Assembly (NCBI GenBank): GCA_000306725.1
Contig: CP003083.1
Span: 124,001-188,000, forward strand
Direction: 5' to 3'
Length of the DNA stretch: 64,000 nt
Origin: Methanolobus psychrophilus R15
GTDB lineage: Archaea > Halobacteriota > Methanosarcinia > Methanosarcinales > Methanosarcinaceae
Made by a program: the position numbers and the translations under genes. Below are positions 13,983 to 48,310 of this stretch, piece after piece. Position 1 is the stretch's first letter. Every line of letters starts with the position of its first letter. The notes under the pieces are model-generated. The model worked only from the letters and a program-made list of their open reading frames with translations. It did no database searches and was not told the DNA's origin.

Positions 13983-14117
13983 TTTTTGAAGTTTGTTCTC
14001 CTCGTCACGTTCATAACCAAAGTATTGATCGGCTAGGATTTTTATAAACTCATATAGGTTTTCTGCATGAATTACTGGTTTATACCCGATGTTCTCAATC
14101 TTGGGAAAATCGATAAA

Positions 14118-27061: not shown

Positions 27062-27063
27062 TT

Positions 27064-30392: not shown

Positions 30393-30844
30393 CATCCCGG
30401 CACCATGTTAGTGAACTTGATGCCATAAATGGCACTAAGTCACGGCCCAAGCTGCGGCCCAAGTCGGGACCACGTTGGGACCATGTAGGGAATAAATCAG
30501 GACCAAGTAAGGACCAAGTAATATCCAAATCACCGACCCAGTTATCGACCCAGTCGCCGACCCAGTTGCATAAGATTTCTTCTCCACTGAATGTTATCAA
30601 ATCTGTCACCAAACAAGTAAGCGAACAAGTAGGCGAACAAGTAGGCGAACAAGTAACCGCTACAAACCACAGAGTACACAGAGATATTGCAGATGAAAAC
30701 TCAAATCTGCAAATTCACCACAAGCCATGTGACGAATTGACTACTCAACAGACGATTGATACAATTCGTTACCCAATGAGTAGCGAATTAAAAACTGTTT
30801 TTAATCCTCAGCCGGGTCACATTATAGGCTATAATAGAGGTTAA
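30389..30844 (+). CDS. Low-complexity ORF of linker-type repeats
   Basis: A 151-aa frame with no globular domain. It strings together several repeat types known from hinges of AlbA_2 ATPases: [40 protein letters not shown] and [15 protein letters not shown]. It starts by ATGA overlap with the ATPase gene and ends two bases before the second pglX half. It may be a translated tail of the ATPase after frameshift, or a store of linker modules. Expression is likely from the coupling, but function is unknown. Confidence 0.5.
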
Positions 30845-30846
30845 TT

Positions 30847-32553
30847 ATGACAACTGATACTAATTCATCAACCACTCCTGTCCCCAGCTTCTACCGCGCC
30901 TCTGCGGCCGATTTCAAGAAAATTCCAGGAAGTCCGATTGCATATTGGGTGAGTGAAAACATAAGGGACGCATTTTCAACCGCTACACCACTTTCTAACT
31001 TAAATGTCCCTCGACAAGGTTTTGCAACAGGTGATAATGATACTTATTTAAGACAGTGGTCAGAAGTTCAAATCTCTAATATTGGATTTAATTGTAAAGA
31101 CAACGAAGATTCTGTCACAAGTGGTTGTCGATGGTTTCCTTGCAATAAAGGTGGAACTTTTAGGAAATGGTTCGGTAATAACAACATTGTCGCTGATTGG
31201 GAGAACAATGGAGAACGAATGAAAAAGTTCAAAGGATCTGTAATTCGTAATCCAAATTACTATTTTAAAGAAGGAATGACTTGGTCTACAATCAGTAGTT
31301 CTAAACTTTCGATGAGATATTCATCAAAGGGTTTTTTATTTGAAACTAAAGGTTCTGTCTGTTTTCCTCTTGATGATGATTCTTTTAAATATTGTTTAGG
31401 CTTTATGAATTGTAAAGTTGTTGAAGAACTTCTGTTAGCAATTTCACCAACGTTAGATTTTCATGAAGGTCCTATTGGAAAAACTCCATTAATAATTTCT
31501 CAAGAAGATCAGATTTCAAATACAGTATCAATTTTAATAAAAAATGCTAAATCTGACTGGGATTCCTACGAAAACTCTTGGGATTTCACCACTCTCCCAT
31601 TCCTCCAACCCGAATACCACCATCCAACCCTCCGCAAAACCTACATCAAACTTCGCGCCCAGTGGAAAGAAATGACACTTGAGATGCAACGGCTAGAGGA
31701 AGAGAACAACCGTGTTTTCATCGAAGCCTACGGCTTGCAGGATGAACTTACACCTGATGTGCCACTTTCAGAGATTACACTGACATGCAATCCACATTAT
31801 CGCTATAATGGAAACAGAAGCGAAGAAGAACTGGAAGCATTGCTGCTCACAGATACAATAAAAGAATTCATCTCCTATGCTGTGGGCTGCATGTTCGGGC
31901 GGTATTCGCTGGACAAGCCGGGGCTGATGCTTGCGAACCAAGGTGAGAAGATAGGAGATTATCTGGAGCAGGTGCCGGAGCCGAGCTTCATGCCGGATGT
32001 GGATAACATCATACCCATGCTTGAGGATGAGTACTTTGAGGATGACATCGTAGGCAGGTTCAAGGAGTTCCTCAAGCTGACCTTTGGAGAGGATAAGCTT
32101 TCCGACAATCTGGATTTCATTGCGGAGGCTCTGGGCGGTAACGGGAAGAAGTCTTCGGAGGTTGTGATAAGGGACTATTTCCTGAAGTCGTTTTACAAGG
32201 ACCATCTGAGGATGTACAAGAAGAGACCCATCTACTGGCTGTTCAGCTCAGGTAAGGGCAGAGCTTTCAATGCACTCGTTTACATGCACAGGTACAATAA
32301 GGAAACGCTGGCGATGATGAGGACAGATTATTTGCTGGAGCTTGAGGGGAAGCTGGATGCTAAGAGGGAGATGATCAAGTCGGATATTGGGAAGGATGCT
32401 CAGGAGAAGGCGCGGCTGGGGAAGATGATTGAAGAGCTCATGGCTTATGATGAAGTACTGAAGAATAAGGCCGATGCGTACATTGAGATTAATCTGGATG
32501 ATGGGGTTGTGGTGAATTACGGGAAGTTTGAAGGGTTGGTGGAGAAGATATGA
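30847..32553 (+). CDS. pglX: PglX, C-terminal specificity half
   Basis: A 568-aa product beginning with residues found in the middle of intact PglX ([20 protein letters not shown]), then a target-recognition region, then the conserved C-terminus ([51 protein letters not shown]). Together with 27064-28923 it makes about 1190 residues, the length of whole PglX. Both halves are in the same phase. Bases 30930-31590, the recognition region, are clearly more AT-rich than the rest, as if exchanged. It probably assembles with the N-terminal half like HsdM with HsdS (inference). Confidence 0.9.
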
Positions 32554-32707
32554 CCATCAAAATTGCAAACTTTCAAATGAAACTATATAATATTATAATA
32601 TACAGTGATAGATGATAGTAATCGTCTTTAGTAGAACTCAAATCTTTAAATGATTATGAATTGAATTTGATCTCAAACAATAGTTAATTTTTATCAAGGT
32701 GTATATT

Positions 32708-33145
32708 ATGGATTCAATTATAGGTGTTGTCTATCCTCTTCATAAAGATGTAATTGACTATATGTTCTCAAACAAAAAGGATGTTTTTGTAAAGTATACT
32801 TCACGCCAACCTCAAAAAAAATCAAGTATCAAGATTAAAGAAGGGATGAAATTATACTTTTATGAGTCAGGTGGGAGTAAATCTATAATCGGTGAAACCA
32901 CTATCCTAAAATACGATTATTTAGACATGCAGTCTGTATTAGATAAATATCTTGAGAGGTTAATTGTTTCAGAAGAAGATTTCAGGACATATGCTAAAGG
33001 CAGAGAACAGAAGAAAGCTTTGGTTTTAGAGTTTGGTTCTTTAAAGAAGTATAAAGAGCCAGTGAAATTGTTAAAACCTATCACAATGGCTGGACTTCAT
33101 TTAACTGAAGAGAGAAAAAAAGAACTTTTTGCTCAAGACTATTGA
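32708..33145 (+). CDS. DUF365 (PUA/ASCH-like) protein
   Basis: A 145-aa protein matching the archaeal DUF365 layout: an opening SIIGVVYPLHKDVIDYMF, then KDVFVKYTSR, KEGMKLYFYESGG and IIGETTILKYD. The fold is PUA/ASCH-like, which suggests binding of modified nucleic acid or a nucleotide. It lies inside the BREX operon between pglX and dgt and is AT-rich, unlike the brx genes. The ATG at 32708 is preferred to 32699 by alignment of the opening strand. Its role in defence is inference. Confidence 0.7.
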   Translation: MDSIIGVVYPLHKDVIDYMFSNKKDVFVKYTSRQPQKKSSIKIKEGMKLYFYESGGSKSIIGETTILKYDYLDMQSVLDKYLERLIVSEEDFRTYAKGREQKKALVLEFGSLKKYKEPVKLLKPITMAGLHLTEERKKELFAQDY

Positions 33146-33260
33146 TAAGAAAATACAACCCGACAAATCAAGATGATGTGCTATAATATGATTTGTGGGA
33201 GTGCTTTTTTAAATTAGTATTAAAGTGATGAAATTGCTAGTATTGGGTTGTGAGAAGGAT

Positions 33261-34898
33261 ATGAAACACAAATTAAAGCAAGAATTTCAACCATCTGATA
33301 GATTAAACCAGGAGGTTGAAAAAAAGTTACCTCTATCTTGTAAGATACTGGAAGATATTGAAAGAAGCGAGTTTGCAAAAGATAGGGATCGTATTCTGTT
33401 TTCACGACCATTTAGGCGTTTACAGCATAAAGCACAGGTATTCTCCAATGAAACAGGAGACCATTATAGAACAAGACTGACTCATACTTTAGAAGTTTCT
33501 CAGATAGCACGGAGTTTAGCAAGATATTTGGGTGCAAATGAGGACCTTGTTGAAGCAATAGCTCTTGGGCATGATATTGGTCATACTCCGTTTGGGCATC
33601 AGGGGGAAAGAGTATTAGATCAAGTTATGAGTGGTGAGGATAAACTTGGTCTGATCAAGTATCCTTTGAATTTTGGTGGGTTCAAACACAATTTCAATGG
33701 TTTGCGTGTGTTGGATGTCGTTCAATCTAAATTTGAGGATTATGAAGGATTAAATCTCTCATGGCAGGTCTTAGAGGGAATTCTGAAACATACAAAGATA
33801 AAAAAGCACAAAAATTGTGAAGAGTACGGAAATTGCTGGGATATAAGGCGATTTGTCAGTGACCAGTCTTTGATAGAAAGGTTATACGTGAAGTATGAGT
33901 TTTCAGTTACGCTTGAAGGTCAAATTGTAGCAATAGCTGATGAAATTGCTCAAAGACAACATGACATTGACGATGGTCTAAGAAATAAAGCGTTAGGGAT
34001 TCAATTAGGCAAATTATACGATGAAGTAATAGGTATTATCGAAAAAATCGTTTCTAACAAAGCACTATATACAAATATAGAAAAAGAACATTTAGATGAC
34101 TTAATAGAACTTTTAATCCGGCTTCATCAAAGTTTACTCGAAAATAAAGAAGCAACCCAACTACTTAAAACAGATAGCTTAGTACGAAATATTATTGAAT
34201 ACCTCATTCTTGATGTTTTTGCCAATTCTCGCGTGAAAATCCAAGGAAATCTAAAACTAACTCCAGATGGAGAAAGGAAAATATTACAAAGCCAAGTTGT
34301 CTGTTTCTCTCTAGTTGGTAGAGATTTAAACAAAGAACTTGAAAAACTTGTCAAATACCGGATTATAAATTCATATGAAGTCAATAAATTTGATGGCAAA
34401 TCTCGCTTTATTGTGAGACAGCTTTTTAAGGCATTCTATACAAATCCACGTCAGATGCCTTCTTATGTGTTAGGAAGGCTTGCAACAAATTTAAACCAGA
34501 ATTGGGATTTCTATTATCCTATAAAGCTCACACATAATGGAGAAACTATAGCATTAAACAATATTAATTTCAACAAAATGAATCGTACTGAAGTAGAAAT
34601 GTTGATTGAATCATTAAAGTTAGAAAACTTAGATACTATATCAAAAGTTCCTCTCAAAATGAGAATTTTAATGCAAGAATCAACGAATGAACGAGAAATA
34701 AGCGAAGCCTTTTATGAAGAGCTAAAGTCAATTAATTCTCTTAAAATAGATGAGCTTAATACTAGCAGCACAGATAGACTATTAAAGTGCCTCTTAGAAA
34801 ACCATTATGCATACCTTTCTACAATTTGCGATTATATTTCAGGAATGTCAGATAACTACGCAAACACTGAATACCGAAAATTGTATCTGGTTGACTGA
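33261..34898 (+). CDS. dgt: HD-domain dGTPase (deoxyguanosine triphosphate triphosphohydrolase)
   Basis: A 545-aa protein. RPFRRLQHKAQVF, THTLEVSQIARSLARYLG and GHDIGHTPFGHQGE give the metal-binding H...HD set, completed by the Asp in AIADEIAQRQHD. dGTPases remove dNTPs, and members of this family act in bacterial phage defence by starving replication. It lies inside the BREX operon, 27 bases before pglZ, and is markedly AT-rich, so it was probably added later. The start is uncertain: 33261 (MKHKLKQ) or 33225/33228 upstream. Confidence 0.88.
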   Translation: MKHKLKQEFQPSDRLNQEVEKKLPLSCKILEDIERSEFAKDRDRILFSRPFRRLQHKAQVFSNETGDHYRTRLTHTLEVSQIARSLARYLGANEDLVEAIALGHDIGHTPFGHQGERVLDQVMSGEDKLGLIKYPLNFGGFKHNFNGLRVLDVVQSKFEDYEGLNLSWQVLEGILKHTKIKKHKNCEEYGNCWDIRRFVSDQSLIERLYVKYEFSVTLEGQIVAIADEIAQRQHDIDDGLRNKALGIQLGKLYDEVIGIIEKIVSNKALYTNIEKEHLDDLIELLIRLHQSLLENKEATQLLKTDSLVRNIIEYLILDVFANSRVKIQGNLKLTPDGERKILQSQVVCFSLVGRDLNKELEKLVKYRIINSYEVNKFDGKSRFIVRQLFKAFYTNPRQMPSYVLGRLATNLNQNWDFYYPIKLTHNGETIALNNINFNKMNRTEVEMLIESLKLENLDTISKVPLKMRILMQESTNEREISEAFYEELKSINSLKIDELNTSSTDRLLKCLLENHYAYLSTICDYISGMSDNYANTEYRKLYLVD

Positions 34899-34924: not shown

Positions 34925-37546
34925 ATGTTAAACCCAGAAAAAACCACTCAGAGCATACTTAAGAAATTCGAAATCCTCAGTGACTTCGAGAAGAGGAAGA
35001 TCGTCTTCTGGTATGATAAGGACGGGACCGCGGATGAGGAGGGGCTTGCACAGATAGGGGAAGCTCTGGTGGAGAGGGGAATTAAGTTGCATGTATTGAA
35101 GAATAACTTCTTTGCAACGAAGAAAATGCTGGAGAATGATGATACGAAGTCCAGCTATCTGATCTATTCCGATCAGGCAGAAAGGGACCCGGAATCGAAC
35201 TGGCTGCTGGACATTCAGCTGTATTCGGCGAGGTTTGAGAACAGCAGGATATCGGACATCAAGAGCGAGTTCGGGATAGAAGGGTATGACCTTGACAGGT
35301 TCCTGGAAAAGCACCAGCAGTTCTTTGCGAGCAAGAGGAGGGTCGTGCCGCTTAAGAAGATATACCAGAGCGACTGGAGGGACGAGGAGTTCACACTCGG
35401 GTTCTTGGGAGTGCTGTCCGGCTCGGCTACCACGGATCTCAAGGAGATCATCCGGAAGATACTCATCAGCTCGCTGGATGAGAACTCCAATACCCTATGG
35501 GAGGACATTGTCAGGTTCGAGCTGGCCGAAGAGTTATGGGGGCTTGTGAACAGGTACTTTGGCTACCGGTCGGAGGAGCCTACTTTAAAGAAGCTCTTCC
35601 TGAGCTTTGTGATCACGCACATCTCGAGGAACACGGACATCAACCTCAAGAAGTACAAGGCTTACAGCAATTCCCTCAGCAATGAATGTGAGATATTCAT
35701 CAAAGGCTGGATGGACAACTCCAGGGATTCGGGAGTCTTTGACGAGTATTGCAGGCAACTGCTTGAAGATAACAGCAGTCAGCTTGAAAAATATCTCAAT
35801 GCAGAGATCCCGAAGTACGATGTCCCGAAGTATCTCGAAGCGGAATCCCTCGCTTTGTTCGATGAGCATGTCATCCGCAGGATAGTCGATGAGCTCGACA
35901 ATGGCAAAGAGGACTTTGAAGGCTATCTTGAATGGATAGCCAGCAGGAAGACAAAACACTGGTATCCCGGCTTTGAGAATATCTACAGTGCCCTGGAATA
36001 TGCCGTAAAGTTACACCAGTTCGCAAAAGAGTTCAGCGCAGAGGACCTCAGCAGCCAGAACCTGAACCACTTCTTCAGGAATTATGCGGAACGCTACTAC
36101 CTGATGGACTATTACTACCGCAAGTTCTACTATCATTACGACAAAGATAACCAGAAAGAGGACCTCAAAACCACAAGAGAGGCCATAGAAAAGCTCTACA
36201 ATAACAGGCTCCTCGACAAACTGCTCACAAGATGGAGCGAGCTCATATCCAAAGAGATGGACGGGCACTGGAATATCGAGCTCATCGACCGCCAGGACGA
36301 GTTCTACAAGCTCTATATAAGGAACATCATCAACCGTAATGACAAGGACAAGATAGCAGTCGTCATTTCCGATGCCATGCGCTACGAAGTAGCCGCAGAG
36401 CTACAGGAGATCCTAAATAAGGACACCAGGGGCACGGTCGAGCTAAAGTGCATGACCGGCTCTCTACCATCATATACCAAGCTGGGCATGGCCAGCCTGC
36501 TCCCGCATGAGAGGCTGGAGTACAGGAACCAGAGTGTATTTGCAGATGGCATCAGTACCGAAGGAATCGAGAACCGGGGCAAGATACTGGAGAGGATGAC
36601 ACCCGATTCCATTGCTCTGGGCTATGAAGACCTCATGAACCTGAAAAGAGATGAAGCTCGTGAAAGGTTCAAGGGCATAAGGCTTTTCTATATCTATCAT
36701 GACATGATCGATGCCACGGGCGATCACTCAGCATCAGAACACGGAGTCTTTAATGCAGCTGAAGAGACAATTTCCGATGTCAAGAAAATCATCGAGAAAC
36801 TCACCAACGCCCAGATAATCAATAACCTAATTGTCACGGCAGACCATGGTTTCATTTATCAGAGAGATAATCTCGAGAGCGTTGATAAAGTTGAAACTAA
36901 TGGCTTTGACAAGGAAAAAGTAATAGCTTCAAGCAAGCGCTTCATCCTCAGTGAAGAGAACATCGATCTGATGAACGTCCATAAGTTCAACATGGATTAT
37001 GTTGTCAAATCTGATAGCAAAAAGGAAATGTTCGCATATGTCCCTCAGGCAGACCTCAGGTTCAGGATGCAGGGTGCCAATAAGAATTTCGTGCATGGCG
37101 GAGCTGCTCCTCAGGAAATAGTAGTCCCTGTGCTTAAATACTCATACAACACCACAGCAGACCTTGACAGAAAAGGCATTAAGCACGGTAAAGTAGGGGT
37201 AATAATCACCAACCCCAGCCGCAAGATAACAAGCAGCCCGTTCTATATAAACATCCTGCAGACAGAGAAAGTGACTGATAAGCTGCTCCCGAGAAGGTTC
37301 AGGGTCGCCTTATGGGACAGGGATGGTGATGAGTACAAAGTGAGCGATGAAAAGCTTGTCATTGCCGAAGGCTCATCAGATGAAGCCTCTGATAGGCAAT
37401 ACAAAGTTACTCTCACACTGACCGGTAATATCGAGAACAAGATATACTATGCAAGACTTATAGATGAAGACCCGACAGAAATCAACAGGGACATAATCGA
37501 TCCCATGCCCTTTGAAGTTGACCTATTGATAGTCGATGATTTCTAA
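34925..37546 (+). CDS. pglZ: BREX protein PglZ
   Basis: An 873-aa protein of the alkaline-phosphatase-like PglZ family, type 1 size. The phosphatase-like core is visible at VVISDAMRYEVAAELQEIL, TGSLPSYTKLGMASLLPH and IVTADHGFIYQR, with a conserved HGGAAPQEIVVPVL. The N-terminal part (WYDKDGTADEEGLAQIGEAL) is the PglZ-N region. It is essential to BREX; some members show metal-dependent phosphodiesterase activity. GC content returns to the level of brxC. brxL follows after 25 bases. Confidence 0.95.
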   Translation: MLNPEKTTQSILKKFEILSDFEKRKIVFWYDKDGTADEEGLAQIGEALVERGIKLHVLKNNFFATKKMLENDDTKSSYLIYSDQAERDPESNWLLDIQLYSARFENSRISDIKSEFGIEGYDLDRFLEKHQQFFASKRRVVPLKKIYQSDWRDEEFTLGFLGVLSGSATTDLKEIIRKILISSLDENSNTLWEDIVRFELAEELWGLVNRYFGYRSEEPTLKKLFLSFVITHISRNTDINLKKYKAYSNSLSNECEIFIKGWMDNSRDSGVFDEYCRQLLEDNSSQLEKYLNAEIPKYDVPKYLEAESLALFDEHVIRRIVDELDNGKEDFEGYLEWIASRKTKHWYPGFENIYSALEYAVKLHQFAKEFSAEDLSSQNLNHFFRNYAERYYLMDYYYRKFYYHYDKDNQKEDLKTTREAIEKLYNNRLLDKLLTRWSELISKEMDGHWNIELIDRQDEFYKLYIRNIINRNDKDKIAVVISDAMRYEVAAELQEILNKDTRGTVELKCMTGSLPSYTKLGMASLLPHERLEYRNQSVFADGISTEGIENRGKILERMTPDSIALGYEDLMNLKRDEARERFKGIRLFYIYHDMIDATGDHSASEHGVFNAAEETISDVKKIIEKLTNAQIINNLIVTADHGFIYQRDNLESVDKVETNGFDKEKVIASSKRFILSEENIDLMNVHKFNMDYVVKSDSKKEMFAYVPQADLRFRMQGANKNFVHGGAAPQEIVVPVLKYSYNTTADLDRKGIKHGKVGVIITNPSRKITSSPFYINILQTEKVTDKLLPRRFRVALWDRDGDEYKVSDEKLVIAEGSSDEASDRQYKVTLTLTGNIENKIYYARLIDEDPTEINRDIIDPMPFEVDLLIVDDF

Positions 37547-37571: not shown

Positions 37572-39611
37572 ATGCTGACCAATGACACAGACATCGGAAC
37601 TGACGAAAAACTGAATCTATACTTTCCTGGAAGAGTGGTCAGGAAGGACCTGACAAAGCAGATCAAGGTAGGCCACAACGTCCCTGTCTATGTCCTTGAA
37701 TACCTGCTGGGAGCTAACTGCGCCACCACTGATGAGGAGCTGATACAGCAGGGTGTCAAGAAGGTCAAAGGCATCCTCTCAGACAACTATGTCCGCCCGG
37801 ATGAAGCAGAGAAGATCAAATCAAAGATAAGGGAAACAGGCTACTACACAATCATCGACAAGGTCTCTGTGAAACTGAACGAAAAAAGAGACATCTATGA
37901 AGCTCTCTTCTCCAACCTCGGCCTGTCGGCTGTACAGGTAGACCCTGAGTATGTCACACGATACGATAAACTTCTTGGTGGAGGTATCTGGTGCATAATA
38001 AAGATGGAGTACAACGCCGAAATGGTGCCATCCCCTTTTATCATATCAAGCCTGAAGCCCATACAGATCCCTAACATCAACATCTCTGAGGTAATAGAGC
38101 AGCGCAAGAACTTCACCAAGGATGAATGGATAGATGTCCTCCTAAGATCCGTAGGCATGGAACCAACACAACTGGAAATGCCTGCCAAATGGCATCTCTT
38201 GGAACGCATGGTGCCTCTCGTGGAGAATAATTACAACCTCTGTGAACTTGGCCCCCGCAGCACGGGAAAATCCCATATCTACAAGGAAATATCCCCCAAC
38301 TCCATACTTATATCCGGAGGACAGACAACAGTTGCAAACCTCTTCTACAATCTGGGTACACGTCAGGTAGGTCTTGTGGGTCTCTGGGACGTTGTAGCCT
38401 TTGACGAGGTAGCAGGCATCCGTTTCAAGGACAAGGATGGCATCCAGATCTTAAAAGACTACATGGCATCCGGCTCCTTTGCAAGAGGCAAGGACCAAAT
38501 CAACGCCAATGCCTCCATCGCCTTCGTTGGTAACGTTAACCAGAGCATATCATCGTTACTTAAGACATCCCATCTCTTCTCTCCATTCCCTGAGGCAATG
38601 AACAATGACAGCGCATTCTTTGACAGGATGCATTACTACTTGCCAGGATGGGAAGTTCCTAAATTCCGACCGGAGCATTTCACAGACAGATATGGTTTCA
38701 TCGTTGACTATCTGGCAGAGTTCCTGAGGGAGATGAGAAAACGCTCCTACAGCGATTTGATCTTCAGGTATTTCAGCTTGGGTAACAACCTGAATCAGAG
38801 AGATGTTATCGCAGTCAAAAAAACCGTTTCAGGACTTGCAAAGATCATCCACCCAGATGAGGATATATCAAAACAAGATGCGCAGGAGATACTGGAATAT
38901 GCCCTCGTGGGAAGGCGAAGGGTCAAAGAGCAACTGAAAAAGATCGGGGGCATGGAGTTCTTTGATGTGAATTTCTCCTACATCGACAACGAAGATATGG
39001 AAGAGCACTTTGTCAACGTCCCTGAAAGCGGGGGGAACAAGATAATACCACCTGGTCTTACAAAGCCCGGACAGGTCTATGCAGTTGCTGCAACAGAGTC
39101 CGGAAAGATAGGCATTTACAAGACAGAGCTCCAGGTAGTATCAGGTTCAGGCAAATATGAAGCATCCGGTCTCAATTCGAATGCAAAAGCAAAGGAATCC
39201 GTAAAAACAGCGATCAACTATTTCAAAGCCAACGCCAAGTCCATAAGCCAATCGATCTCCACTAAAGAAAGAGATTATTTCATGAATCTGCAGGATGTCT
39301 ATGGAGTCGGGGCCTCTGATGGCCTGTCACTGGCTGCTTTCATCAGTCTCTGTTCAGGAGCGCTGGAAAGACCAATACAGGAACAGACAGCTATTATCGG
39401 GACTATGACCATAGGCGGCTCCATCTTGAATATAGACAACCTCTCAGATCTTCTGCAAGTCTCCCTAGATGCCGGGGCCAGGAAGGTATTGATTCCTGCA
39501 TCCGCTACATCAAAATTGGGTACTGTGCCAGCTGATTTGTTGAGCAAGTTCCAGCTTGCATTTTATGCTGATCCGGTTGATGCGGTGCATAAGGCGCTGT
39601 TCTTTGGATGA
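37572..39611 (+). CDS. brxL: BREX Lon-like protein BrxL
   Basis: A 679-aa protein. The central AAA+ module has a Walker A-like GPRSTGKSHIYKEI and Walker B GLWDVVAFDEVAGI. The C-terminal domain resembles Lon protease (GASDGLSLAAFISLCSG with the presumed Ser, then TMTIGGSILNI and DAGARKVLIPASA with the Lys). BrxL multimers bind DNA and, in studied systems, are needed for defence but not for methylation. Its presence, with PglZ and BrxB/BrxC, marks this as type 1 BREX. It is the last gene of the operon, with T-rich sequence after the stop. Confidence 0.94.
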   Translation: MLTNDTDIGTDEKLNLYFPGRVVRKDLTKQIKVGHNVPVYVLEYLLGANCATTDEELIQQGVKKVKGILSDNYVRPDEAEKIKSKIRETGYYTIIDKVSVKLNEKRDIYEALFSNLGLSAVQVDPEYVTRYDKLLGGGIWCIIKMEYNAEMVPSPFIISSLKPIQIPNINISEVIEQRKNFTKDEWIDVLLRSVGMEPTQLEMPAKWHLLERMVPLVENNYNLCELGPRSTGKSHIYKEISPNSILISGGQTTVANLFYNLGTRQVGLVGLWDVVAFDEVAGIRFKDKDGIQILKDYMASGSFARGKDQINANASIAFVGNVNQSISSLLKTSHLFSPFPEAMNNDSAFFDRMHYYLPGWEVPKFRPEHFTDRYGFIVDYLAEFLREMRKRSYSDLIFRYFSLGNNLNQRDVIAVKKTVSGLAKIIHPDEDISKQDAQEILEYALVGRRRVKEQLKKIGGMEFFDVNFSYIDNEDMEEHFVNVPESGGNKIIPPGLTKPGQVYAVAATESGKIGIYKTELQVVSGSGKYEASGLNSNAKAKESVKTAINYFKANAKSISQSISTKERDYFMNLQDVYGVGASDGLSLAAFISLCSGALERPIQEQTAIIGTMTIGGSILNIDNLSDLLQVSLDAGARKVLIPASATSKLGTVPADLLSKFQLAFYADPVDAVHKALFFG

Positions 39612-39841: not shown

Positions 39842-41287
39842 TCAATGACACAGTGGGCATTCTAGCCCAGTATCATAGCAGGCTTTGCATACGGGAACTA
39901 CGTGGTCACAGGTATCCCATTTATAAGCAATTGACCGAAGATGATCTTTCCCACAAAAAGCGCATTTGACAACATAACCTTTGTCCGTGTGGATTATTTC
40001 CTGTGTCGGAGGAAATAGTGCCCTCCATTTTTCGAGCTTGACTTGCTCATATTCTTCAATATATTCACTATCTGGCGATATCAACCAGAGCTTGTAATTA
40101 TTGTATTCTTTCTTGAATCCAAGAGCATTCTCCGTGATTATCTTATATTCTTTTGCTATTTCGGTGTATTGCTGGCACAAGTATTGGTACTGCTCGAGCA
40201 AAAAAGGTAAATCGTGGTCCTTAAATGCCTTTCCCATGGTCTGATACCGATACAACCATACGAAATCCTCAGCCTCATTTATAATAGATTCTTGTTCTTT
40301 CCTGACCAAGGATATCTCAGCCAGTAATTCAGTGATTTCCTTTGATAATTTCTCATATTCTGGTGAAAACTTTGCTAATATCTGTTCAAAGTATTGTTTT
40401 TTGTAATTTTCAATCTCTTGCAGCACTGTCAAATACTCATGATATAGCTCATTGTACTGCTTTTTTAAGTCCTCCATTTCAGCAGATATAAGTACAATAT
40501 TTTTCATTATATCTGTGATGCGTGCAAACAGAACAATGTCCCGTGCTTCATTAAGCACCTGCTGGTAATCATTTTCTAACATTCTGTACTGATTGGCTAT
40601 TTGCCATCCTTCGTCTTGCAACGAGACGTATTCTGAGTATACCCTTTTTATGTCGGATATTATGTTTACATTATCACCATTGCCATTGATTTCCAGCCAC
40701 ATCTCATCCCATCTGAAGTACGGAAGCTCAGTTTCAAATTGCTGTTTAAAATCACAATATCTGGTGACAGAGACCGGAATATAAAGGACATCAATCCCGT
40801 TTTCCTGATAGAACTCCTTTTTCTCCGGGGAATCGTCGTGCGTATGGACAATCTCTATTGCTGTATGCAGTTCCCCTTGAGAAAGCAGGGCAACGTCAGG
40901 GACGTATTCAATCTGGCTTCTGTACTCAAGTTCTATGCTGTCGATGTTTTGAAGAGGAGAATACCTTGTAGTGTGGTACTGCGTGTCGAATGCATTAAAC
41001 TTGAATCTAAGTGTAGTAGATGGAGATTGTCTCTTTTCCAAGTGGTTTTTTAAATAATGGTACAAGCACAGTTTTGAGTTAGAATGTACAATAGACTCTC
41101 CTGTTCCAGTGTGGGTGGAGTTAGCATAATGAGCAAAATGATGTGCACGGAGGTCACCAACCTTTGCCATCATTTTTTCGCCACAGTCCGGACAAATGTA
41201 AGATGCCTCTTTGCTAATCTTTTTTACGTCTTCAATCCAAACAACCTCGTCCAAGGAACTAAATGCATACTCATATTCAACCATCAT
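39842..41287 (-). CDS. CoiA-like nuclease with coiled coil and zinc-ribbon tail
   Basis: A 481-aa protein. The N-terminus has a CxxC treble clef (YICPDCGEKMMAKVG) and HHFAHY, then HSNSKLCLYHYL as in CoiA. A PD-(D/E)xK-like core follows (YVPDVALLSQ, TAIEIVHTHDD, IDVLYIPVS), the catalytic Lys being replaced by Val/His context. A coiled coil covers residues about 205-390. The C-terminus holds CAFCGKDH, CDHVVPVCKAC and CPLC, a zinc site with HNH character. It is the third gene of the helicase operon, 13 bases after the preceding stop. Likely DNA processing in defence (inference). Confidence 0.75.
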   Translation of the reverse strand: MMVEYEYAFSSLDEVVWIEDVKKISKEASYICPDCGEKMMAKVGDLRAHHFAHYANSTHTGTGESIVHSNSKLCLYHYLKNHLEKRQSPSTTLRFKFNAFDTQYHTTRYSPLQNIDSIELEYRSQIEYVPDVALLSQGELHTAIEIVHTHDDSPEKKEFYQENGIDVLYIPVSVTRYCDFKQQFETELPYFRWDEMWLEINGNGDNVNIISDIKRVYSEYVSLQDEGWQIANQYRMLENDYQQVLNEARDIVLFARITDIMKNIVLISAEMEDLKKQYNELYHEYLTVLQEIENYKKQYFEQILAKFSPEYEKLSKEITELLAEISLVRKEQESIINEAEDFVWLYRYQTMGKAFKDHDLPFLLEQYQYLCQQYTEIAKEYKIITENALGFKKEYNNYKLWLISPDSEYIEEYEQVKLEKWRALFPPTQEIIHTDKGYVVKCAFCGKDHLRSIAYKWDTCDHVVPVCKACYDTGLECPLCH

Positions 41288-41300
41288 TGCCCACTCCGCT

Positions 41301-44210
41301 TTAAATTAAAGTTTGTTCGACTATGTTCTTATCAAACAATTCTATAATCTTCCTTGGATTCCTATCGCCAGCTATCAGTATCCACCAATAACCCGGAACT
41401 TCTAGAGGTTCATCTTTCTTCTTTCCAAAGGCTCCTTTTACAATAGATGACCACTCCATATCAGTTATCTTTGAATTTGGATTCAACTCGGAAAGGCTAT
41501 CCTTAACAAGTTTATATCTTCCGTCAGGTATGAAATATTTGAGAATATTGCCAAGTTTCAGAGTGCCATAGCCTGTTGATGGCAGAATTTTCATATCATT
41601 ATATCTTCTGCTGACCATCTGTTCTGCCTCTGCCCGTATCTTCTCGATGTTCAACTCTTGATTTTCGACAGTGGCGTCAACTCCCAGTTTCAGAGCGGTT
41701 TCCTGCGCCCATGAGAGATCATCCAAGTATCTCAAATTATCATCCGGACTTACATAAGACTCGTATTTCGGAACTGCAAAATAGTGATGGAAAACTGGTT
41801 TTTTACCTTCCTTTTTCCTCAACACCCTACCCATCCTCTGGACCAGTTCTAACTTTGTCTTTGAAGAAGAAACATTGATTCCGATCTCCGCATCTGGTAT
41901 ATCTATTCCTTCATTAAGCATATCGGCTCCGATGAGCACTCCATACTCTGCCTGTTTGAATTGCATTATTACTTTATTGGGATCATCTTTTATTTTGGAG
42001 TGAATGACAAAGACGTTATCAAAATGCTTTCTCAGTTCCATACCAACACTGTCGCATGTTTCAATGTACTTAAGAAAGACAATCACCTTTTTCTTTGCTG
42101 CAAGATACTGTTTCGTGAGTTCTATGGCGTCATTTATCTTTGGTTCTGATTTGTGGATAATTGACCTTCTTTCCAAGATTAGGTATTGCAATTGTTTCCA
42201 TTGGTCTGGCAGACTGAAGCCTTCATATCTTGCGGTTTCTACTAGCTTGACAAACTCATAGAGATCATCAATCCTTCTGAACTTATTATTTGAAAGTTTA
42301 GAGATAATGGCATGATCATTTTTGACAAAATTGAAAAGTTTTGTGATCTTATCAGATATTCTCCTGAAATCAATCTCTTCGTCTATGGATAGATAAACAG
42401 TATGAAGCTTCCATTCGAACTTTGGCAGGACTCCACGAGAAATTGCATCCTCAACTGCAAAAGTGTAAACAACATGACCCAAGTTTCTAGTAAGGATACT
42501 CCGTTTCATAGATCCGTCAATGGTAGCAGAAAGACCGAGTTTCCATTTACAGTCTACAGAGAGAGCTTTTTTGAACTCCGAAGCAGCAGAGTGATGAACT
42601 TCATCTACTATCAAGAGATCCGTTGGGTAATCTTGTGGGTTCTTATAGACTGTTTGAAGAGTATTGAAATATATCTTTATCCCATTACAACTTAAAGGGA
42701 TATCATAATCTGATAAAGGATTTGCTGGCAAGCCAAACTTGTCAATAGCTTCTCTTTTCCATTGGTTCAAGATTGCCCTTGAGTGAGCAAATACCCTTAC
42801 TACGCCTTTTTTCTGAGTCTTCCCAAGTGCTTCTATCGCCATCATACCCACGAGGGTCTTACCGGTGGCAGTTGCCATTTCAAGAATTCCTTTATGGTTG
42901 TTAGATTCCCATGCCTGAAACGCTTCTACCTGATGGTCCCATGGAAATAACAGTATTTTGGGACTGTTTATGAATTCCCATACTTCTCTGGAACTAATAC
43001 CTGACAAATTCTCTTGGAAGACATTTATTGTCCTTTCATCTTTGAGTAATGAATAGAGCTCAAGGAAAAATAATGCACTACCCGGAACACAATACTCTGA
43101 AGCCATTTTTACGTATTCAGGAGAAATATCCATTTTTCGAAGCATTTTTTTGAAAAATAGAAGTGTTGAATCTACTTCTGTAGTGCCAAAGTAATTTACC
43201 GATTGTTTATTTACCAAACTGAAAAGATTTGTATTGATTAATTTTCTAAACTGGATAAAATTTTCTTTAACATTATCAAAATAATCCCCATCAACTTTCT
43301 TGAAATCGGATTTTTGGATCCTTTGTCTTAGTATTCCGAAAAATATGGATGAAAAGGCATTTTCAAGCTTAGTGTATTCAGTTTTATAACCTAATAAATC
43401 CCTTTTCAACGTTGGGACAAATAGTCCATACTCCTTGTAATAAGTATAGATCATCAGTTCATCATCTATAATTGCAAGTTTTCTAATATCTGATGAGCCG
43501 TTAAGATAAATTTTGCAGAAGTCTCCAAAGGAAAGCCCTTCCCCCTTTAAGGCTTCAATACCTATCTTCTTTATATTCAATGTCCCTTGCTTTGGGATGA
43601 ATTCTTTTGCATTGGTAGAAGTATCTATTGCTGCTATTTTCCTTTCTTCTATATTGTTAGTTTTCTTTGTATTCTTTGCTTTTGACTTTGTCTTTGTGTC
43701 ATTAGATAGAAAGTATAGTTTATTTGCATTCGATCTTTTTCTCATGGCATGATTCTGTATTTGAGTTACAGCTTTTCTATCTTGGATAGATTTAAGTTTC
43801 AATTGAGTATCATTGTCATGTTTATTTATTGCCATTATTTTATTTAGATGTCTCTCTGCTTCATAGATATCGTTTTCTTTTAGTTCTATATCTGAGATGG
43901 CTTTTAAAGCATCAACATGTTCTTCATCAAGGCGAATTGTTCTTCGATAGTATTTTTTTGCTTTTTTTATGTCAAATAAAAACTCATATGTAAAACCCAG
44001 CATGTAGTATATCTCTGCATTTTCTGGATCCAGCTTCTGTACTTCTTTGAAACAGTGAAGAGATCTTTCATAATCTCCAGTTTTAAAGAACTCAATTCCT
44101 TCAAGATATAATTCATCTTTCAACTTTTTATTATCGGAAAAAGTGCAGCTTGATGACATCACATTATCTTGCATTACTACGCCTCTTTTTTCGCTTACAA
44201 ATATTATCAC
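41301..44210 (-). CDS. TPR-SF2 helicase fusion
   Basis: A 969-aa protein. N-terminal TPRs (EGIEFFKTGDYERSLHCF, YYMLGFTYEFLFDIKKAKKY, EAERHLNKIM) are followed by an unknown region and then an SF2 helicase: motif I ATATGKTLVGMMA, DEAH-like LLIVDEVHHSAASEF, motif III LGLSATIDG and motif VI VQRMGRVLRKKEGKK. The C-terminus resembles restriction-type helicases. A GTG at 44210 overlaps the previous stop by GTGA; ATG 44174 (MQDNV) with AAAGAGGCG upstream is an alternative. It sits between a helicase-nuclease and a CoiA-like nuclease in one operon. Confidence 0.82.
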   Translation of the reverse strand: MIIFVSEKRGVVMQDNVMSSSCTFSDNKKLKDELYLEGIEFFKTGDYERSLHCFKEVQKLDPENAEIYYMLGFTYEFLFDIKKAKKYYRRTIRLDEEHVDALKAISDIELKENDIYEAERHLNKIMAINKHDNDTQLKLKSIQDRKAVTQIQNHAMRKRSNANKLYFLSNDTKTKSKAKNTKKTNNIEERKIAAIDTSTNAKEFIPKQGTLNIKKIGIEALKGEGLSFGDFCKIYLNGSSDIRKLAIIDDELMIYTYYKEYGLFVPTLKRDLLGYKTEYTKLENAFSSIFFGILRQRIQKSDFKKVDGDYFDNVKENFIQFRKLINTNLFSLVNKQSVNYFGTTEVDSTLLFFKKMLRKMDISPEYVKMASEYCVPGSALFFLELYSLLKDERTINVFQENLSGISSREVWEFINSPKILLFPWDHQVEAFQAWESNNHKGILEMATATGKTLVGMMAIEALGKTQKKGVVRVFAHSRAILNQWKREAIDKFGLPANPLSDYDIPLSCNGIKIYFNTLQTVYKNPQDYPTDLLIVDEVHHSAASEFKKALSVDCKWKLGLSATIDGSMKRSILTRNLGHVVYTFAVEDAISRGVLPKFEWKLHTVYLSIDEEIDFRRISDKITKLFNFVKNDHAIISKLSNNKFRRIDDLYEFVKLVETARYEGFSLPDQWKQLQYLILERRSIIHKSEPKINDAIELTKQYLAAKKKVIVFLKYIETCDSVGMELRKHFDNVFVIHSKIKDDPNKVIMQFKQAEYGVLIGADMLNEGIDIPDAEIGINVSSSKTKLELVQRMGRVLRKKEGKKPVFHHYFAVPKYESYVSPDDNLRYLDDLSWAQETALKLGVDATVENQELNIEKIRAEAEQMVSRRYNDMKILPSTGYGTLKLGNILKYFIPDGRYKLVKDSLSELNPNSKITDMEWSSIVKGAFGKKKDEPLEVPGYWWILIAGDRNPRKIIELFDKNIVEQTLI

Positions 44211-47200
44211 TTATTTTCTGTATGCTTGCATATCCGTTTATAATCACAAAACCGACAGTTTGGCTCCCCCTTAACCTCAAAGTTCTCCCCAGTTATCCTC
44301 CTCACCATCTCCCTTACCCTTCCAGCCACAGCCTCAACACTCTCCTCGCTCACGTCCACCAATCTCAATTCAGCAACATCAGGATTGACATACATGTGGC
44401 CTGCCTGCACCGGCAACTTACCGTACTTTCCCTTCACAGCCAAACAATAAACCGCTATCTGGATATCCTCTTTCAGCTGGTTTTTAGTGTAGGGAGTCTT
44501 GTTGGTCTTGTAGTCGATAACAATAAAGTCCCCGTCCGGTGTCCTGTCCAGGCGGTCGATGTAACCTCCAAACTTTGCACCGTCAATACTCAGGTCAAAT
44601 CCTTCCTCCACTTCCACGGTCTCGTTTGGGTTGTTTTCTTCGGAATTCGTCCAGAATTCCAGCATTCTCTGCATTCTGGAATATTCCTGCTCTCCCTGTG
44701 TTCTGGAATCAAAGACATGTGGGTTCCACGTAGAATCCAGCAATTCCCTTGCCTTGGAGATGTCAGGAGATTCTCCCTGCATCCGCAATCTTGACATCTG
44801 CTCGAATACCGCATGCACATCAGTTCCAACCTGGAAAAAAGTCTTCTGTGGTACCGGTATCTTCAGCACATAGCTGTACTTGAACTTCAGAGGGCAGTCT
44901 TCATACATCTTAATGCCTGATGCCGAGAAACGCATATCCTTGTCTACAAGAGGCGGCAGCTTTCCATCAACCAAAGCTTCCAGATCTTCGGGAGGCATGG
45001 GGCTTACACGCAGGAACTCTGAGATGTCAAAGGCCTGCAGGTTTCCCTTAAGCTCCAGTTCCCTGATCTGTGCAACCACCACCAGTGACTCCACAGCCTG
45101 TTTTAGCTGACCCTGATTAGTATAGATCCTGACAAGCCTCTCAAACTCGTCTCTTTTTCGCTTGAGATTGGAATCCTCCACTACTTCGCATCTCTCCTCG
45201 CATAGAGGAGCTTCAATGAACTCTACCAGAGGATTCTTTGCATAATCGATCTGCTCAAGGAACTCACTTGGTTTCACGCCGCGTTTGTTACCCTCGTATA
45301 TCTCGGGAAACACGAGGTATAACTTTTCCTTTGCACGGGTCATTGCCACATAGGCAAGTCTCCGTTCTTCTTCAACATGCAATACCTTCTCATCGGCATC
45401 TCTTTGGACGCCCTTTGCAAGTTCTGCAGGTACCGTGAATTTCTTGCGAGTATGCTGCAAAGGCAAGTGTCTTGCAGCCATATCACACACAAAAACAGCC
45501 TTTGCTTCCTTTCCCTTGGACTGGTGGATGGTCATCACCTTGACAGTATTGTCATCAGTGGACTCACCATCCTCTATATCCAGGTTGAACACAAGGTCCA
45601 GATGTTTAACGACGGTCTCAAACTCTGACCCCCCATCAACAAGCTCCAGATCCTCCACCATGCTGACAAGTGAATTAAGTATCCTGATATTTCTCCTGGA
45701 CTGTGGGGTATCCTCGTGCAGTTGCGAACGGTAGATATCCGTTGCATCCATCAGTAGATGCTTGACGGTATCAGATGGAAGATGGTTCTTCTTGTAGACG
45801 AGAAGTTCCTCCACCCTCTGGACAAAAGACTTTAAAAGAGACTCCTGAGTAATACCGGTATCTGCAAGGTGATGCAGCAGAACTGAATAGATGCCATCAC
45901 CCTGCAGTGCATCTTCTCTGCTGAGCCTGCGGGCAAGCACATTAATCCTCTGCAGGTTATGCTCGCTCACACCTTCCCTGCCAAATACCCTTGCAAAGGC
46001 CACACCGTTATTGAATGGATCTGCCACCACACGCATGTAGGCAATTGCTTCCTGTACAATAGGGAATTGGTTCAGTTGCAATGCACCTACGTATTCCACA
46101 GGTAACAGGTATTTTCGAAGAGCCTCGCTAAACTTCCTGCCGTCAGCACGCTTTCTTGTAAGGATATAGATATCCTTTGGCTGAAGACCTTCCTCGGCCA
46201 CCAGCCTGTTTACTTCCGATGCCACCCACTCAGCTTCGCTCGCATCATTGGGAGCTTTTACAACCTTTACTTTTGAGATATTTCCATTGGATGAAACTAT
46301 CTTTTTCTCTTCTCTTTCCGGATTGAAACCAATGAGCTGCCTGGAAAGTTCAACTATCTGGGATGTGGAACGATAATTGACTCCCAAGGAGATCTTCTCA
46401 AGATTAGGGTAATACTCCTGCAATTGCCTTATATTGGAAAGGTAGGCACCTCGGAACCTGTAGATGCACTGATCATCATCCGCCACGCAAGTCAGGTTAT
46501 TGCCATCTGCCAGAAGATTAACAAGATACAACTGCGAGTAGTTGGTATCCTGGAACTCGTCAACTAGAATGTAATCGTAACGGCTTTTAACTTTGTTCCT
46601 GACAATACTGTTACTCTCTAAAAGCTGGCATGCTATGGAGATCATGTCATTGTAATCCAGAAAGCCATTATTATGCTTGTACTGCCTGTATCGTTCATAG
46701 AATCTGGCAAGATCCTGCAACTTCAGGAGAGTGTCAATTCTATCGTCAGCCAGTTCTGCCTCTGAGGACAGCTGTGATTCAACATAGCCATGAATATCTG
46801 AAGGCAAGACAAGGTGGTCCTGAAACTGTGAAACACCTTCAAGCAGGCTATCTATGAGGTCGTAGGGAGACGGAGGAATATTGATGCTTTCAAATCCAAA
46901 AGAGTCGATATGCCTGATACCCCATATATTGGAGTGCTCCTTTGAGATTAATTTGGCCCCGGAATTTATACCCAAATCAAAAGAGAATTCCCTGATAATG
47001 TTGTTGCAGAAGGAGTGGAATGTTGAGACGGTCATACCGCTTCCATAGCCGATGTTTTTCTCGATCCTTTCCTCCATCTCCCCCGCGGCTTTTTCTGAAA
47101 ATGTGAGCGCAAGTATCTTTTCTGGTTCCAGGCCATTCTTTATTAGGCTTACTACCTTTTCGGTAATAGTCAAGGTTTTACCTGAACCGGGGCCTGCAAG

Positions 47201-47275
47201 TATGAGTAAGGGCCCTGTTCTGTAAGATACTGCCTTTAACTGATTCTCATTAAGTGTCGCTTCAACCAATCCCAT
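44207..47275 (-). CDS. UvrD/Rep-like helicase fused to Cas4/AddB-like nuclease
   Basis: A 1022-aa protein. SF1A motifs are Walker A LILAGPGSGKTLTITEKV, ILVDEFQDTNYSQLYLV, VNYRSTSQIVEL and motif VI YVAMTRAKEKLYLVF. The C-terminal PD-(D/E)xK nuclease shows FIVIDYKTNKTPYTK. Its four cysteines for an iron-sulphur staple are in YEDCPLKFKY and CRFCDYKRICKH. Such fusions unwind and degrade DNA ends in repair or defence. It is the first gene of a three-gene minus-strand operon and is divergent from the CARF-HTH regulator, 435 bases away. Confidence 0.9.
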   Translation of the reverse strand: MGLVEATLNENQLKAVSYRTGPLLILAGPGSGKTLTITEKVVSLIKNGLEPEKILALTFSEKAAGEMEERIEKNIGYGSGMTVSTFHSFCNNIIREFSFDLGINSGAKLISKEHSNIWGIRHIDSFGFESINIPPSPYDLIDSLLEGVSQFQDHLVLPSDIHGYVESQLSSEAELADDRIDTLLKLQDLARFYERYRQYKHNNGFLDYNDMISIACQLLESNSIVRNKVKSRYDYILVDEFQDTNYSQLYLVNLLADGNNLTCVADDDQCIYRFRGAYLSNIRQLQEYYPNLEKISLGVNYRSTSQIVELSRQLIGFNPEREEKKIVSSNGNISKVKVVKAPNDASEAEWVASEVNRLVAEEGLQPKDIYILTRKRADGRKFSEALRKYLLPVEYVGALQLNQFPIVQEAIAYMRVVADPFNNGVAFARVFGREGVSEHNLQRINVLARRLSREDALQGDGIYSVLLHHLADTGITQESLLKSFVQRVEELLVYKKNHLPSDTVKHLLMDATDIYRSQLHEDTPQSRRNIRILNSLVSMVEDLELVDGGSEFETVVKHLDLVFNLDIEDGESTDDNTVKVMTIHQSKGKEAKAVFVCDMAARHLPLQHTRKKFTVPAELAKGVQRDADEKVLHVEEERRLAYVAMTRAKEKLYLVFPEIYEGNKRGVKPSEFLEQIDYAKNPLVEFIEAPLCEERCEVVEDSNLKRKRDEFERLVRIYTNQGQLKQAVESLVVVAQIRELELKGNLQAFDISEFLRVSPMPPEDLEALVDGKLPPLVDKDMRFSASGIKMYEDCPLKFKYSYVLKIPVPQKTFFQVGTDVHAVFEQMSRLRMQGESPDISKARELLDSTWNPHVFDSRTQGEQEYSRMQRMLEFWTNSEENNPNETVEVEEGFDLSIDGAKFGGYIDRLDRTPDGDFIVIDYKTNKTPYTKNQLKEDIQIAVYCLAVKGKYGKLPVQAGHMYVNPDVAELRLVDVSEESVEAVAGRVREMVRRITGENFEVKGEPNCRFCDYKRICKHTENK

Positions 47276-47540
47276 TCCTCCTCTTTTTTAACTCAGTCCT
47301 CTCATATATTTGCTCAAGCCATCCGTTCAGGCAAATTAAAGTTCCAAACCATTTTTGCTATACCTGACAACTGATCACCTAAATTAAATATAAATATAGT
47401 TTGAATCAATTAAAACCTTTTTATTCATATCTGCTGAGTTTCTGGTTCAAAAGTCGTTTTTTGAGGCAGCATCACCACCCAATGACTTTGCTGCCTCTGA
47501 ACTTCGTTTTGTACCCCCCAGCAATTCCAACCCGGCACAA

Positions 47541-47710: not shown

Positions 47711-48310
47711 ATGACAGATTCAACACTAATAACCACACTTTACAATCTCGAGCCTGTACTAATATGTGTAACTCGCCTCTCACCTACAAAAGTGATCATT
47801 CTGACAGAAGAAAATGCAGTTGACAGGAAAGTTCAGGCAGAGAACACACTTGAAGCTACCTTTGGCAAGATCATAGAAGTGAAAAAAGCCATTACTTCAT
47901 TGTATGATCCTGTCAGGGTAGCAAAGGATGTTGCTGATATCATTGAAAAAGAGCATGCCTTGGGTAAAAATGTGCTGATCAACGTCTCCGGCGGCAGGAA
48001 GCCACAGGCTTTCGGAACACTTTTTGGCGCTTACGCCCGAAGTGATATGGTTAAAAAGGTTGTATATGTCACAGAAGAAGACAATTTCATGATCGAGTTT
48101 CCTATTCTGAGCTTTAATCTGTCTCCCACCAAAAAAGTAATCCTTGAACTGATACAGAATGGTACATCTGCAGTGGAGAACATTGCTGCGAATGTGGGTA
48201 TCTCAAAAGGCATGGCGTACAATCACCTGAGAGAACTGAAGGCCATGGGTTATATCTCGGATGAAGGTGGCTATTCACTGACGGATTCCGGGAGATTGGC
48301 AGTGATTTGA
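47711..48310 (+). CDS. CARF-winged-helix transcription factor (Csa3-like)
   Basis: A 199-aa protein. The N-terminal CARF (Rossmann-like) domain has TLYNLEPVLICVTRLSPTKV and the ligand loop LINVSGGRKPQAFGTLFG. The C-terminal winged helix spans about residues 135-195 (LSPTKKVILELIQNGTSAVE, VGISKGMAYNHLRELKAMG). Csa3 regulators bind cyclic oligoadenylates in CRISPR systems, but no cas operon or array is visible here apart from the casposase. It lies divergent from the helicase-nuclease operon. A leaderless transcript from the TATA at 47681 would start at the ATG. Confidence 0.85.
   Translation: MTDSTLITTLYNLEPVLICVTRLSPTKVIILTEENAVDRKVQAENTLEATFGKIIEVKKAITSLYDPVRVAKDVADIIEKEHALGKNVLINVSGGRKPQAFGTLFGAYARSDMVKKVVYVTEEDNFMIEFPILSFNLSPTKKVILELIQNGTSAVENIAANVGISKGMAYNHLRELKAMGYISDEGGYSLTDSGRLAVI

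What the first reader, a model, noticed from the sequence alone, without database searches (positions are those of the whole stretch)
39842..47275. Candidate uncharacterised defence operon: UvrD-nuclease, TPR-helicase, CoiA-like nuclease
Three large genes overlap or nearly touch (GTGA overlap and 13-base gap). Two helicases of different superfamilies and two nucleases in one unit, next to BREX and divergent from a CARF regulator, is not an arrangement that I recognise as a named system. The CoiA-like protein has a zinc tail and long coiled coil in addition to its nuclease core.
Basis: inference. Interest (0 to 1): 0.7.

Follow-up and report, generated by a model that had tools for sequence, protein, structure and literature searches.

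The report
Mix-and-match defence operon beside BREX
A methane-producing archaeon carries a switch-controlled operon of DNA-unwinding and DNA-cutting enzymes beside its BREX antiviral system; it is not one fixed new system but a set of swappable helpers, since the same two main enzymes sit next to many different antiviral systems in related archaea.

Summary
The three genes are real and operon-like (4-base overlap, 13-base gap), convergent with BREX-1 and divergent from a Csa3-like CARF regulator in a Methanolobus genome. They are not a co-conserved three-gene system. The CoiA-like gene accompanies neither partner elsewhere in what I searched. The lead gene is a UvrD helicase fused to a Cas4/AddB-like Fe-S nuclease, a family already proposed in 2017 as an ancillary part of several defence systems. 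In Methanosarcinaceae it heads operons whose following genes are swapped: PbeA-like helicase, BREX-3, Wadjet, type III R-M, McrBC-Mrr, a TmtA/DrmD-like pair, CRISPR I-B. It meets brxL tail to tail in seven loci from three UvrD-nuclease clades. The second gene is an XPB-like helicase closest to PbeA but without PbeA's HKD nuclease; it recurs beside BREX, Dnd, DISARM-type genes and type III R-M genes, and joined the UvrD-nuclease at least twice. A CARF/UvrD-nuclease intergenic element is conserved in four genomes, yet no Cas10 palm was found in this genome. Best reading: a CARF-controlled auxiliary DNA-destruction cassette backing whichever restriction system is beside it. New variant of a known kind; function is inferred, not tested.

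The parts
44207..47275 (-). UvrD (SF1A) helicase fused to a Cas4/AddB-like PD-(D/E)XK nuclease with four Fe-S-type cysteines (UvrD-Cas4 fusion, 'UvrDn')
   Evidence: UvrD-helicase 5e-69, PDDEXK_1 2e-42, cas4 2e-10; nearest solved motors PcrA/Rep/UvrD, nearest solved nuclease AdnA; H821, D907, D921, K923, Q939, Y943, C794, C1007, C1010, C1016 kept in 37-38 of 39 aligned sequences, the rest being gaps apart from one D907H
41301..44210 (-). TPR plus all-helical region plus XPB-like SF2 helicase, PbeA family, no HKD domain ('HEL')
   Evidence: PADLOC PbeA 6.5e-58, best stretches matching only profile positions after about 240; AlphaFold model pLDDT 75.8, residues 225-415 helical; Z 21 to archaeal XPB; no HxKx4D motif in the window protein
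39842..41287 (-). CoiA-like predicted nuclease with coiled coil and C-terminal CxxC zinc-type tail; not co-conserved
   Evidence: CoiA_N 6e-11; P130-D131 and E145 invariant in nine aligned sequences; weak model, pLDDT 56.5, top Foldseek row a restriction-endonuclease fold at E 0.17, not significant; CxxC at 442, 467, 477
47711..48310 (+). CARF-HTH (Csa3-like) transcription regulator, divergent from the operon
   Evidence: 78-91% identical orthologues divergent from UvrDn operons in L018, L157, L164
47551..47595 (.). Conserved inverted-repeat element (AACTAAAT...ATTTAGTT and GTGAATATTTACTATTCACA), candidate CARF operator
   Evidence: 17 of 20 positions of the second repeat kept in L018, L157, L164; 0-1 of 2000 Markov-shuffled regions as good
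47465..47495 (.). Hairpin-forming inverted repeat GGCAGCA-N17-TGCTGCC, also in L018 and L164; a different hairpin in L157 (seen by eye)
   Evidence: no Rfam family reaches its gathering score
22902..39611 (+). Neighbouring BREX-1 cluster: BrxB-position gene 22902-23483, brxC 23504-27061, pglX halves 27058-28923 and 30847-32553, pglZ 34925-37546, brxL 37572-39611
   Evidence: PADLOC BrxC, PglX, PglZ, BrxL matches; BrxB is named from position only, no NCBIfam hit

Best explanation
The operon is a CARF-regulated, modular auxiliary restriction cassette inside a BREX-1 defence island, not a self-contained three-part machine. UvrDn is the constant head: an AdnAB/AddAB-like motor-nuclease that, once foreign DNA has an end, nick or stalled fork, unwinds and degrades it. 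HEL is a PbeA-type XPB-like translocase without its own nuclease that most likely couples a modification-guided system (here BREX-1) to a partner nuclease by moving along or remodelling unmodified DNA, its TPRs acting as a docking arm. CoiA is an opportunistic extra endonuclease. CARF-HTH adjusts expression through the divergent promoter. Shown: gene order, domains, conserved catalytic residues, repeated association with many defence systems, conserved intergenic element. Inferred: joint action on foreign DNA, coupling to BREX, CARF control and its ligand.
For: UvrDn: at least 11 of 24 Methanosarcinaceae loci have a PADLOC defence match (E<1e-20) among the first two genes past its 3' end, against 1 match among the 63 neighbours of 34 control genes of 550 aa or more in the same family (Fisher p about 1e-4, or 9e-4 if the two loci with HEL alone are left out; rows not independent). 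Operons with different following genes. UvrDn tail to tail with brxL in seven loci from three UvrDn clades; well-supported branches force at least five changes of that label. HEL: 13 of 44 loci beside BREX, others beside Dnd, DISARM-type genes, type III R-M genes, a methylase. HEL of the window and of L017-L019 lie in separate well-supported clades (97-99), so UvrDn-HEL pairing arose at least twice. In Methanohalophilus G213 and G367, HEL lies at the 5' and UvrDn at the 3' end of one BREX-1 cluster. Catalytic residues kept.
Against: No functional data. UvrDn also occurs in all seven loci of genus g3 without an obvious defence neighbour directly after it, so a plain repair role is possible. UvrDn and HEL do not co-occur in genomes clearly more than expected (5 genomes with both, of 39 and 31 among 392; about 3 expected). 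Physical clustering in defence islands can reflect insertion hotspots rather than joint function. The control set is small and loci are related by descent.
Confidence: 0.58

Rival explanations
1. UvrDn is mainly a chromosomal repair enzyme (an archaeal stand-in for RecBCD/AddAB/AdnAB); defence genes accumulate beside it because the locus is an insertion hotspot.
For: One copy at apparently ordinary sites in genus g3 genomes; nearest solved structures are repair enzymes (PcrA, AdnA); tyrosine-recombinase-like genes flank the window island (seen, named from memory).
Against: Close co-directional spacing (4-base overlap to about 110 bases) with different following genes; recurrent tail-to-tail place beside brxL in three clades; distant relatives (34-38%) beside TmtA/DrmD, Dnd and type I R-M.
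Confidence: 0.22
2. UvrDn, HEL and CoiA form one dedicated stand-alone antiviral system, of which this genome holds the only copy seen.
For: Tight translational coupling in the window (4-base overlap, 13-base gap); UvrDn-HEL pairing arose at least twice.
Against: CoiA absent from every other UvrDn or HEL locus examined; most UvrDn and HEL genes occur apart.
Confidence: 0.07
3. HEL is the restriction motor of a PbeABCD/Dnd-like phosphorothioation system.
For: PbeA is its best PADLOC family; relatives lie beside dndBCD(A) in L028 and beside dndCD in L038.
Against: No PbeC or DndE-like partner in the operon; no DndC above cut-off in the whole own genome (best 34 bits against a cut-off of 290), no DndB.
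Confidence: 0.03
4. The unit belongs to TOTE-like conflict systems (TPR, OB/cold-shock, TBP, effector), HEL's TPR being the T component.
For: In L018 and L157 a TPR protein with a cold-shock-like stretch precedes UvrDn (domain read by eye); TPR-CSD proteins mark TOTE and TALON systems (PMC12458937).
Against: No cold-shock or TBP gene seen in the window operon; TPR proteins are common in these genomes.
Confidence: 0.05

Closest known systems
UvrD-Cas4-like (pfam12705) helicase-nuclease fusions, Hudaiberdiev et al. 2017 (PMC5704561)
   Same: Same two-domain fusion; same proposal of an ancillary role in several defence systems; type III R-M is a shared context (L158, L160).
   Different: Contexts found here that the text I read does not name: BREX-1, BREX-3, Wadjet, McrBC, TmtA/DrmD pair, Dnd, type I R-M, a CARF regulator and a PbeA-like partner.
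PbeA of PbeABCD (PMC6459918; reinterpreted in PMC10853773)
   Same: SF2 core; association with DNA-modification systems.
   Different: HKD nuclease domain absent, replaced by a helical region and TPRs; no PbeB, PbeC or PbeD beside it; no DndC in the genome.
BREX auxiliary nuclease effectors (PMC12839542, 2026)
   Same: Extra nucleases encoded beside BREX core genes, PD-(D/E)XK among them, some fused to SF2 helicases.
   Different: The main text has no occurrence of UvrD, RecB or SF1 helicase; its supplements could not be read.
AdnAB / AddAB / RecBCD
   Same: UvrD-type motor plus RecB-family nuclease; Fe-S-type cysteines as in AddB.
   Different: Single chain rather than heterodimer gene pair; defence contexts.
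Csa3 / MM_0565 CARF-HTH regulators (PMC7465815, PMC8699464)
   Same: CARF plus winged HTH; archaeal transcription factors.
   Different: No type III CRISPR palm domain in this genome; paired with a non-CRISPR operon.

Membership tests
UvrD-Cas4 (pfam12705) fusion family | UvrD SF1 helicase fused to a pfam12705 nuclease | tested here: met
   PF00580 5e-69, PF12705 2e-42 in one chain
UvrD-Cas4 (pfam12705) fusion family | Intact RecB-family active site and four Fe-S cysteines | tested here: met
UvrD-Cas4 (pfam12705) fusion family | Same monophyletic clade as the published fusions | not tested
   Their sequences were not in hand
PbeABCD | PbeA-like SF2 helicase core | tested here: met
   PADLOC PbeA 6.5e-58
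PbeABCD | HKD nuclease fused N-terminally in PbeA | tested here: not met
   No HxKx4D motif; N-terminal region helical; PbeA profile matched only beyond about position 240
PbeABCD | PbeC (CxC ABC ATPase) and DndE-like PbeD beside PbeA | tested here: not met
   Operon genes are UvrD-nuclease and CoiA-like
PbeABCD | Phosphorothioation genes in the genome | tested here: not met
   No DndC over cut-off; no DndB
BREX core | Gene required in every BREX of a type | tested here: not met
   UvrDn and HEL occur beside BREX only in some loci and elsewhere without it
Gabija (GajAB) | GajA OLD-TOPRIM partner gene | tested here: not met
   UvrD part matches GajB profiles (4e-87) as UvrD proteins do, but neighbouring genes are HEL and CARF
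Type III CRISPR-linked CARF signalling | Cas10 in the genome | tested here: not met
   No PF22335 match in the complete own genome, 5 of 14 controls positive
CoiA family | CoiA N-terminal domain and PD...E nuclease core | tested here: met
   catalysis not tested, ExK lysine not evident
TOTE-like conflict systems | TPR, OB/CSD, TBP and effector genes together | tested here: inconclusive
   Only TPR seen in the window; TPR plus cold-shock-like stretch in L018 and L157; TBP not searched

The most novel reading that the evidence does not exclude
A CARF-HTH switch that is not fed by type III CRISPR controls a shared DNA-executioner module (UvrD-Cas4 nuclease, often with an HKD-less PbeA-like motor) which different restriction systems plug into by sitting behind it, so that one degradation engine serves BREX, Wadjet, R-M, McrBC and others.
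Probability: 0.2. Interest if true: 0.75.

Novelty: new variant of a known kind. Interest (0 to 1): 0.47.

Why it matters
It is still unclear how BREX finally destroys or blocks foreign DNA. A motor-nuclease and a translocase that repeatedly settle beside BREX of several types, and beside other modification-guided systems, are direct candidates for a shared downstream step that can be tested by gene deletion. The swapping of following genes behind one conserved head shows how archaeal defence islands are assembled, and a CARF regulator without Cas10 raises the question of what signal it reads.

Tried and rejected
Phosphorothioation partner: no DndB or DndC. Type III CRISPR signal for the CARF protein: PF20824 gave no control signal and is void; PF22335 worked in controls and was negative. 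Regulon search with a gapped operator pattern found one site in G009 and missed the window's own site, so it says nothing; a shorter pattern in the window found only the known site exactly. Rfam on the intergenic region: one sub-threshold snoRNA hit, taken as chance. CoiA fold search: model weak, no significant row; CoiA against PDB sequences: only zinc-finger rows above 0.04. HEL fold comparison covers residues 416-855; the helical region 225-415 had no row of its own and was not searched alone. Two literature searches and one read gave no prior UvrD-BREX link; most subscription papers and all supplements were out of reach.

Full report
What is there. The window is bases 124001-188000 of the single 3.07-Mb contig of a Methanolobus genome (G010 in the same genus matches the M. 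bombayensis contig). The three minus-strand genes are as described, with a 4-base overlap and a 13-base gap. They converge on brxL of a BREX-1 cluster and diverge from a Csa3-like CARF-HTH gene.

The lead gene. It joins a UvrD motor to a PDDEXK_1 (pfam12705) nuclease. The nearest solved motors are PcrA, Rep and UvrD and the nearest solved nuclease is AdnA. Across 39 aligned relatives the RecB-type residues (H821, D907, D921, K923, Q939, Y943) and four cysteines are kept wherever the sequence is present, with one D907H exception. This is the UvrD-Cas4 fusion that Hudaiberdiev et al. 2017 (PMC5704561) already proposed as an ancillary component of several defence systems.

Its contexts. In 24 Methanosarcinaceae loci the genes after it differ: HEL and CoiA (window), HEL (L017), HEL and BREX-3 (L018), Wadjet JetABCD (L148), a DUF4011/MTES_1575 protein and Jet genes (L164), type III R-M with a SNF2 gene (L158, L160), McrC-McrB-Mrr (L162), a DrmD-like SNF2 and TmtA pair (L157), CRISPR I-B (L151). 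At least 11 of 24 loci have a PADLOC match below 1e-20 among the first two genes past its 3' end, against one match among 63 neighbours of 34 control genes. The 11 were counted from individually scanned proteins plus the group table. The loci are not independent, so the p value is a guide only. Seven loci keep a brxL-to-UvrDn tail-to-tail frame with a variable slot between, in three separate UvrDn clades. More distant relatives (34-38%) in other families lie beside the same TmtA/DrmD pair (L172), Dnd (L169) and type I R-M (L170).

The second gene. HEL is nearest PbeA in PADLOC and XPB in solved structures. It lacks the HKD nuclease that defines PbeA: no HxKx4D motif, and its N-terminal 225-415 is helical in a model of good local confidence. 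Relatives stand beside BREX in 13 of 44 loci (BREX-1: window, L017, L022, L037; BREX-3: L018, L019, L088; BrxC/PglX-type clusters in haloarchaea and L092) and beside Dnd, DISARM-type genes, type III R-M genes and a lone methylase. The BREX type of the haloarchaeal and L092 clusters was not settled. The window HEL and the L017-L019 HELs fall in different well-supported clades, while their UvrDn neighbours are 66-81% identical, so the pairing formed or was replaced at least twice. In two Methanohalophilus genomes HEL and UvrDn stand at opposite ends of one BREX-1 cluster.

The third gene. The CoiA-like gene has an apparently intact PD...E core but matches in only 10 of 392 genomes, its own included, and no relative lies in a UvrDn-HEL locus. 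It is best treated as cargo.

Regulation. CARF orthologues 78-91% identical lie divergent from UvrDn operons in L018, L157 and L164, and the intergenic region keeps an inverted-repeat element (17 of 20 positions, 0-1 of 2000 shuffles as good). No Cas10 palm domain was found in this complete genome though controls rang. So, if the CARF protein senses a ligand, its source here is unknown. That CARF controls the operon is inference.

Interpretation. The three-gene-system reading fails its own test. The better-supported reading is a modular auxiliary cassette: UvrDn as a degradation engine, HEL as a modification-coupled translocase, CoiA as cargo, CARF as switch. The main rival is a repair enzyme at an insertion hotspot, supported by lone copies at ordinary sites in genus g3. 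Nothing here measures activity. The recent BREX survey (PMC12839542) names many auxiliary nucleases but its main text does not mention UvrD, RecB or SF1 helicases; its supplements were not readable, so absence of prior notice is not proven.

Noticed in passing
window 14067-15434 (+) and 54665-55987 (-): Two tyrosine-recombinase-like genes flank the McrBC, BREX and UvrDn region, suggesting a mobile or formerly mobile island; named from sequence by memory, not by a family search.
   Followed up: no
window 27058-32553: PglX is split into two ORFs with a Schlafen/AlbA_2-like gene (28860-30392) and a short gene (30389-30844) between them; L037 has a similar gene between brxC and pglX.
   Followed up: partly
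window 17592-20586: Two genes that read like a McrB/McrC type IV restriction pair upstream of BREX (McrC-like N-terminus in the second); by eye only.
   Followed up: no
window 32699-34898: A DUF365 gene and a dGTPase-like HD gene sit inside the BREX cluster between pglX and pglZ.
   Followed up: no
L157 548-7035 and L172 11837-19511: UvrDn followed by a TmtA and a DrmD-like SNF2 gene in two archaeal families with UvrDn only about 37% identical; TmtA and SNF2 also lie near UvrDn in L152. This trio may be a real conserved unit.
   Followed up: partly
L018 14348-16891 and L157 12284-13726: A protein with an Sm-like start, helical repeats and a cold-shock-like stretch, 37% identical between the two, precedes UvrDn directly; reminiscent of TOTE components.
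   Followed up: partly
L148 14030-14752, L019 12674-13384, L155 15550-16269: A second CARF-type regulator (HFX_2341/DUF6293 family in L148; the other two by similar N-termini) stands near UvrDn or HEL loci that lack the window's CARF type.
   Followed up: no
L020 9529-11487: A TPR protein similar to the N-terminal part of HEL but without a helicase core lies 42 bases upstream of brxB in Methanolobus G003.
   Followed up: no
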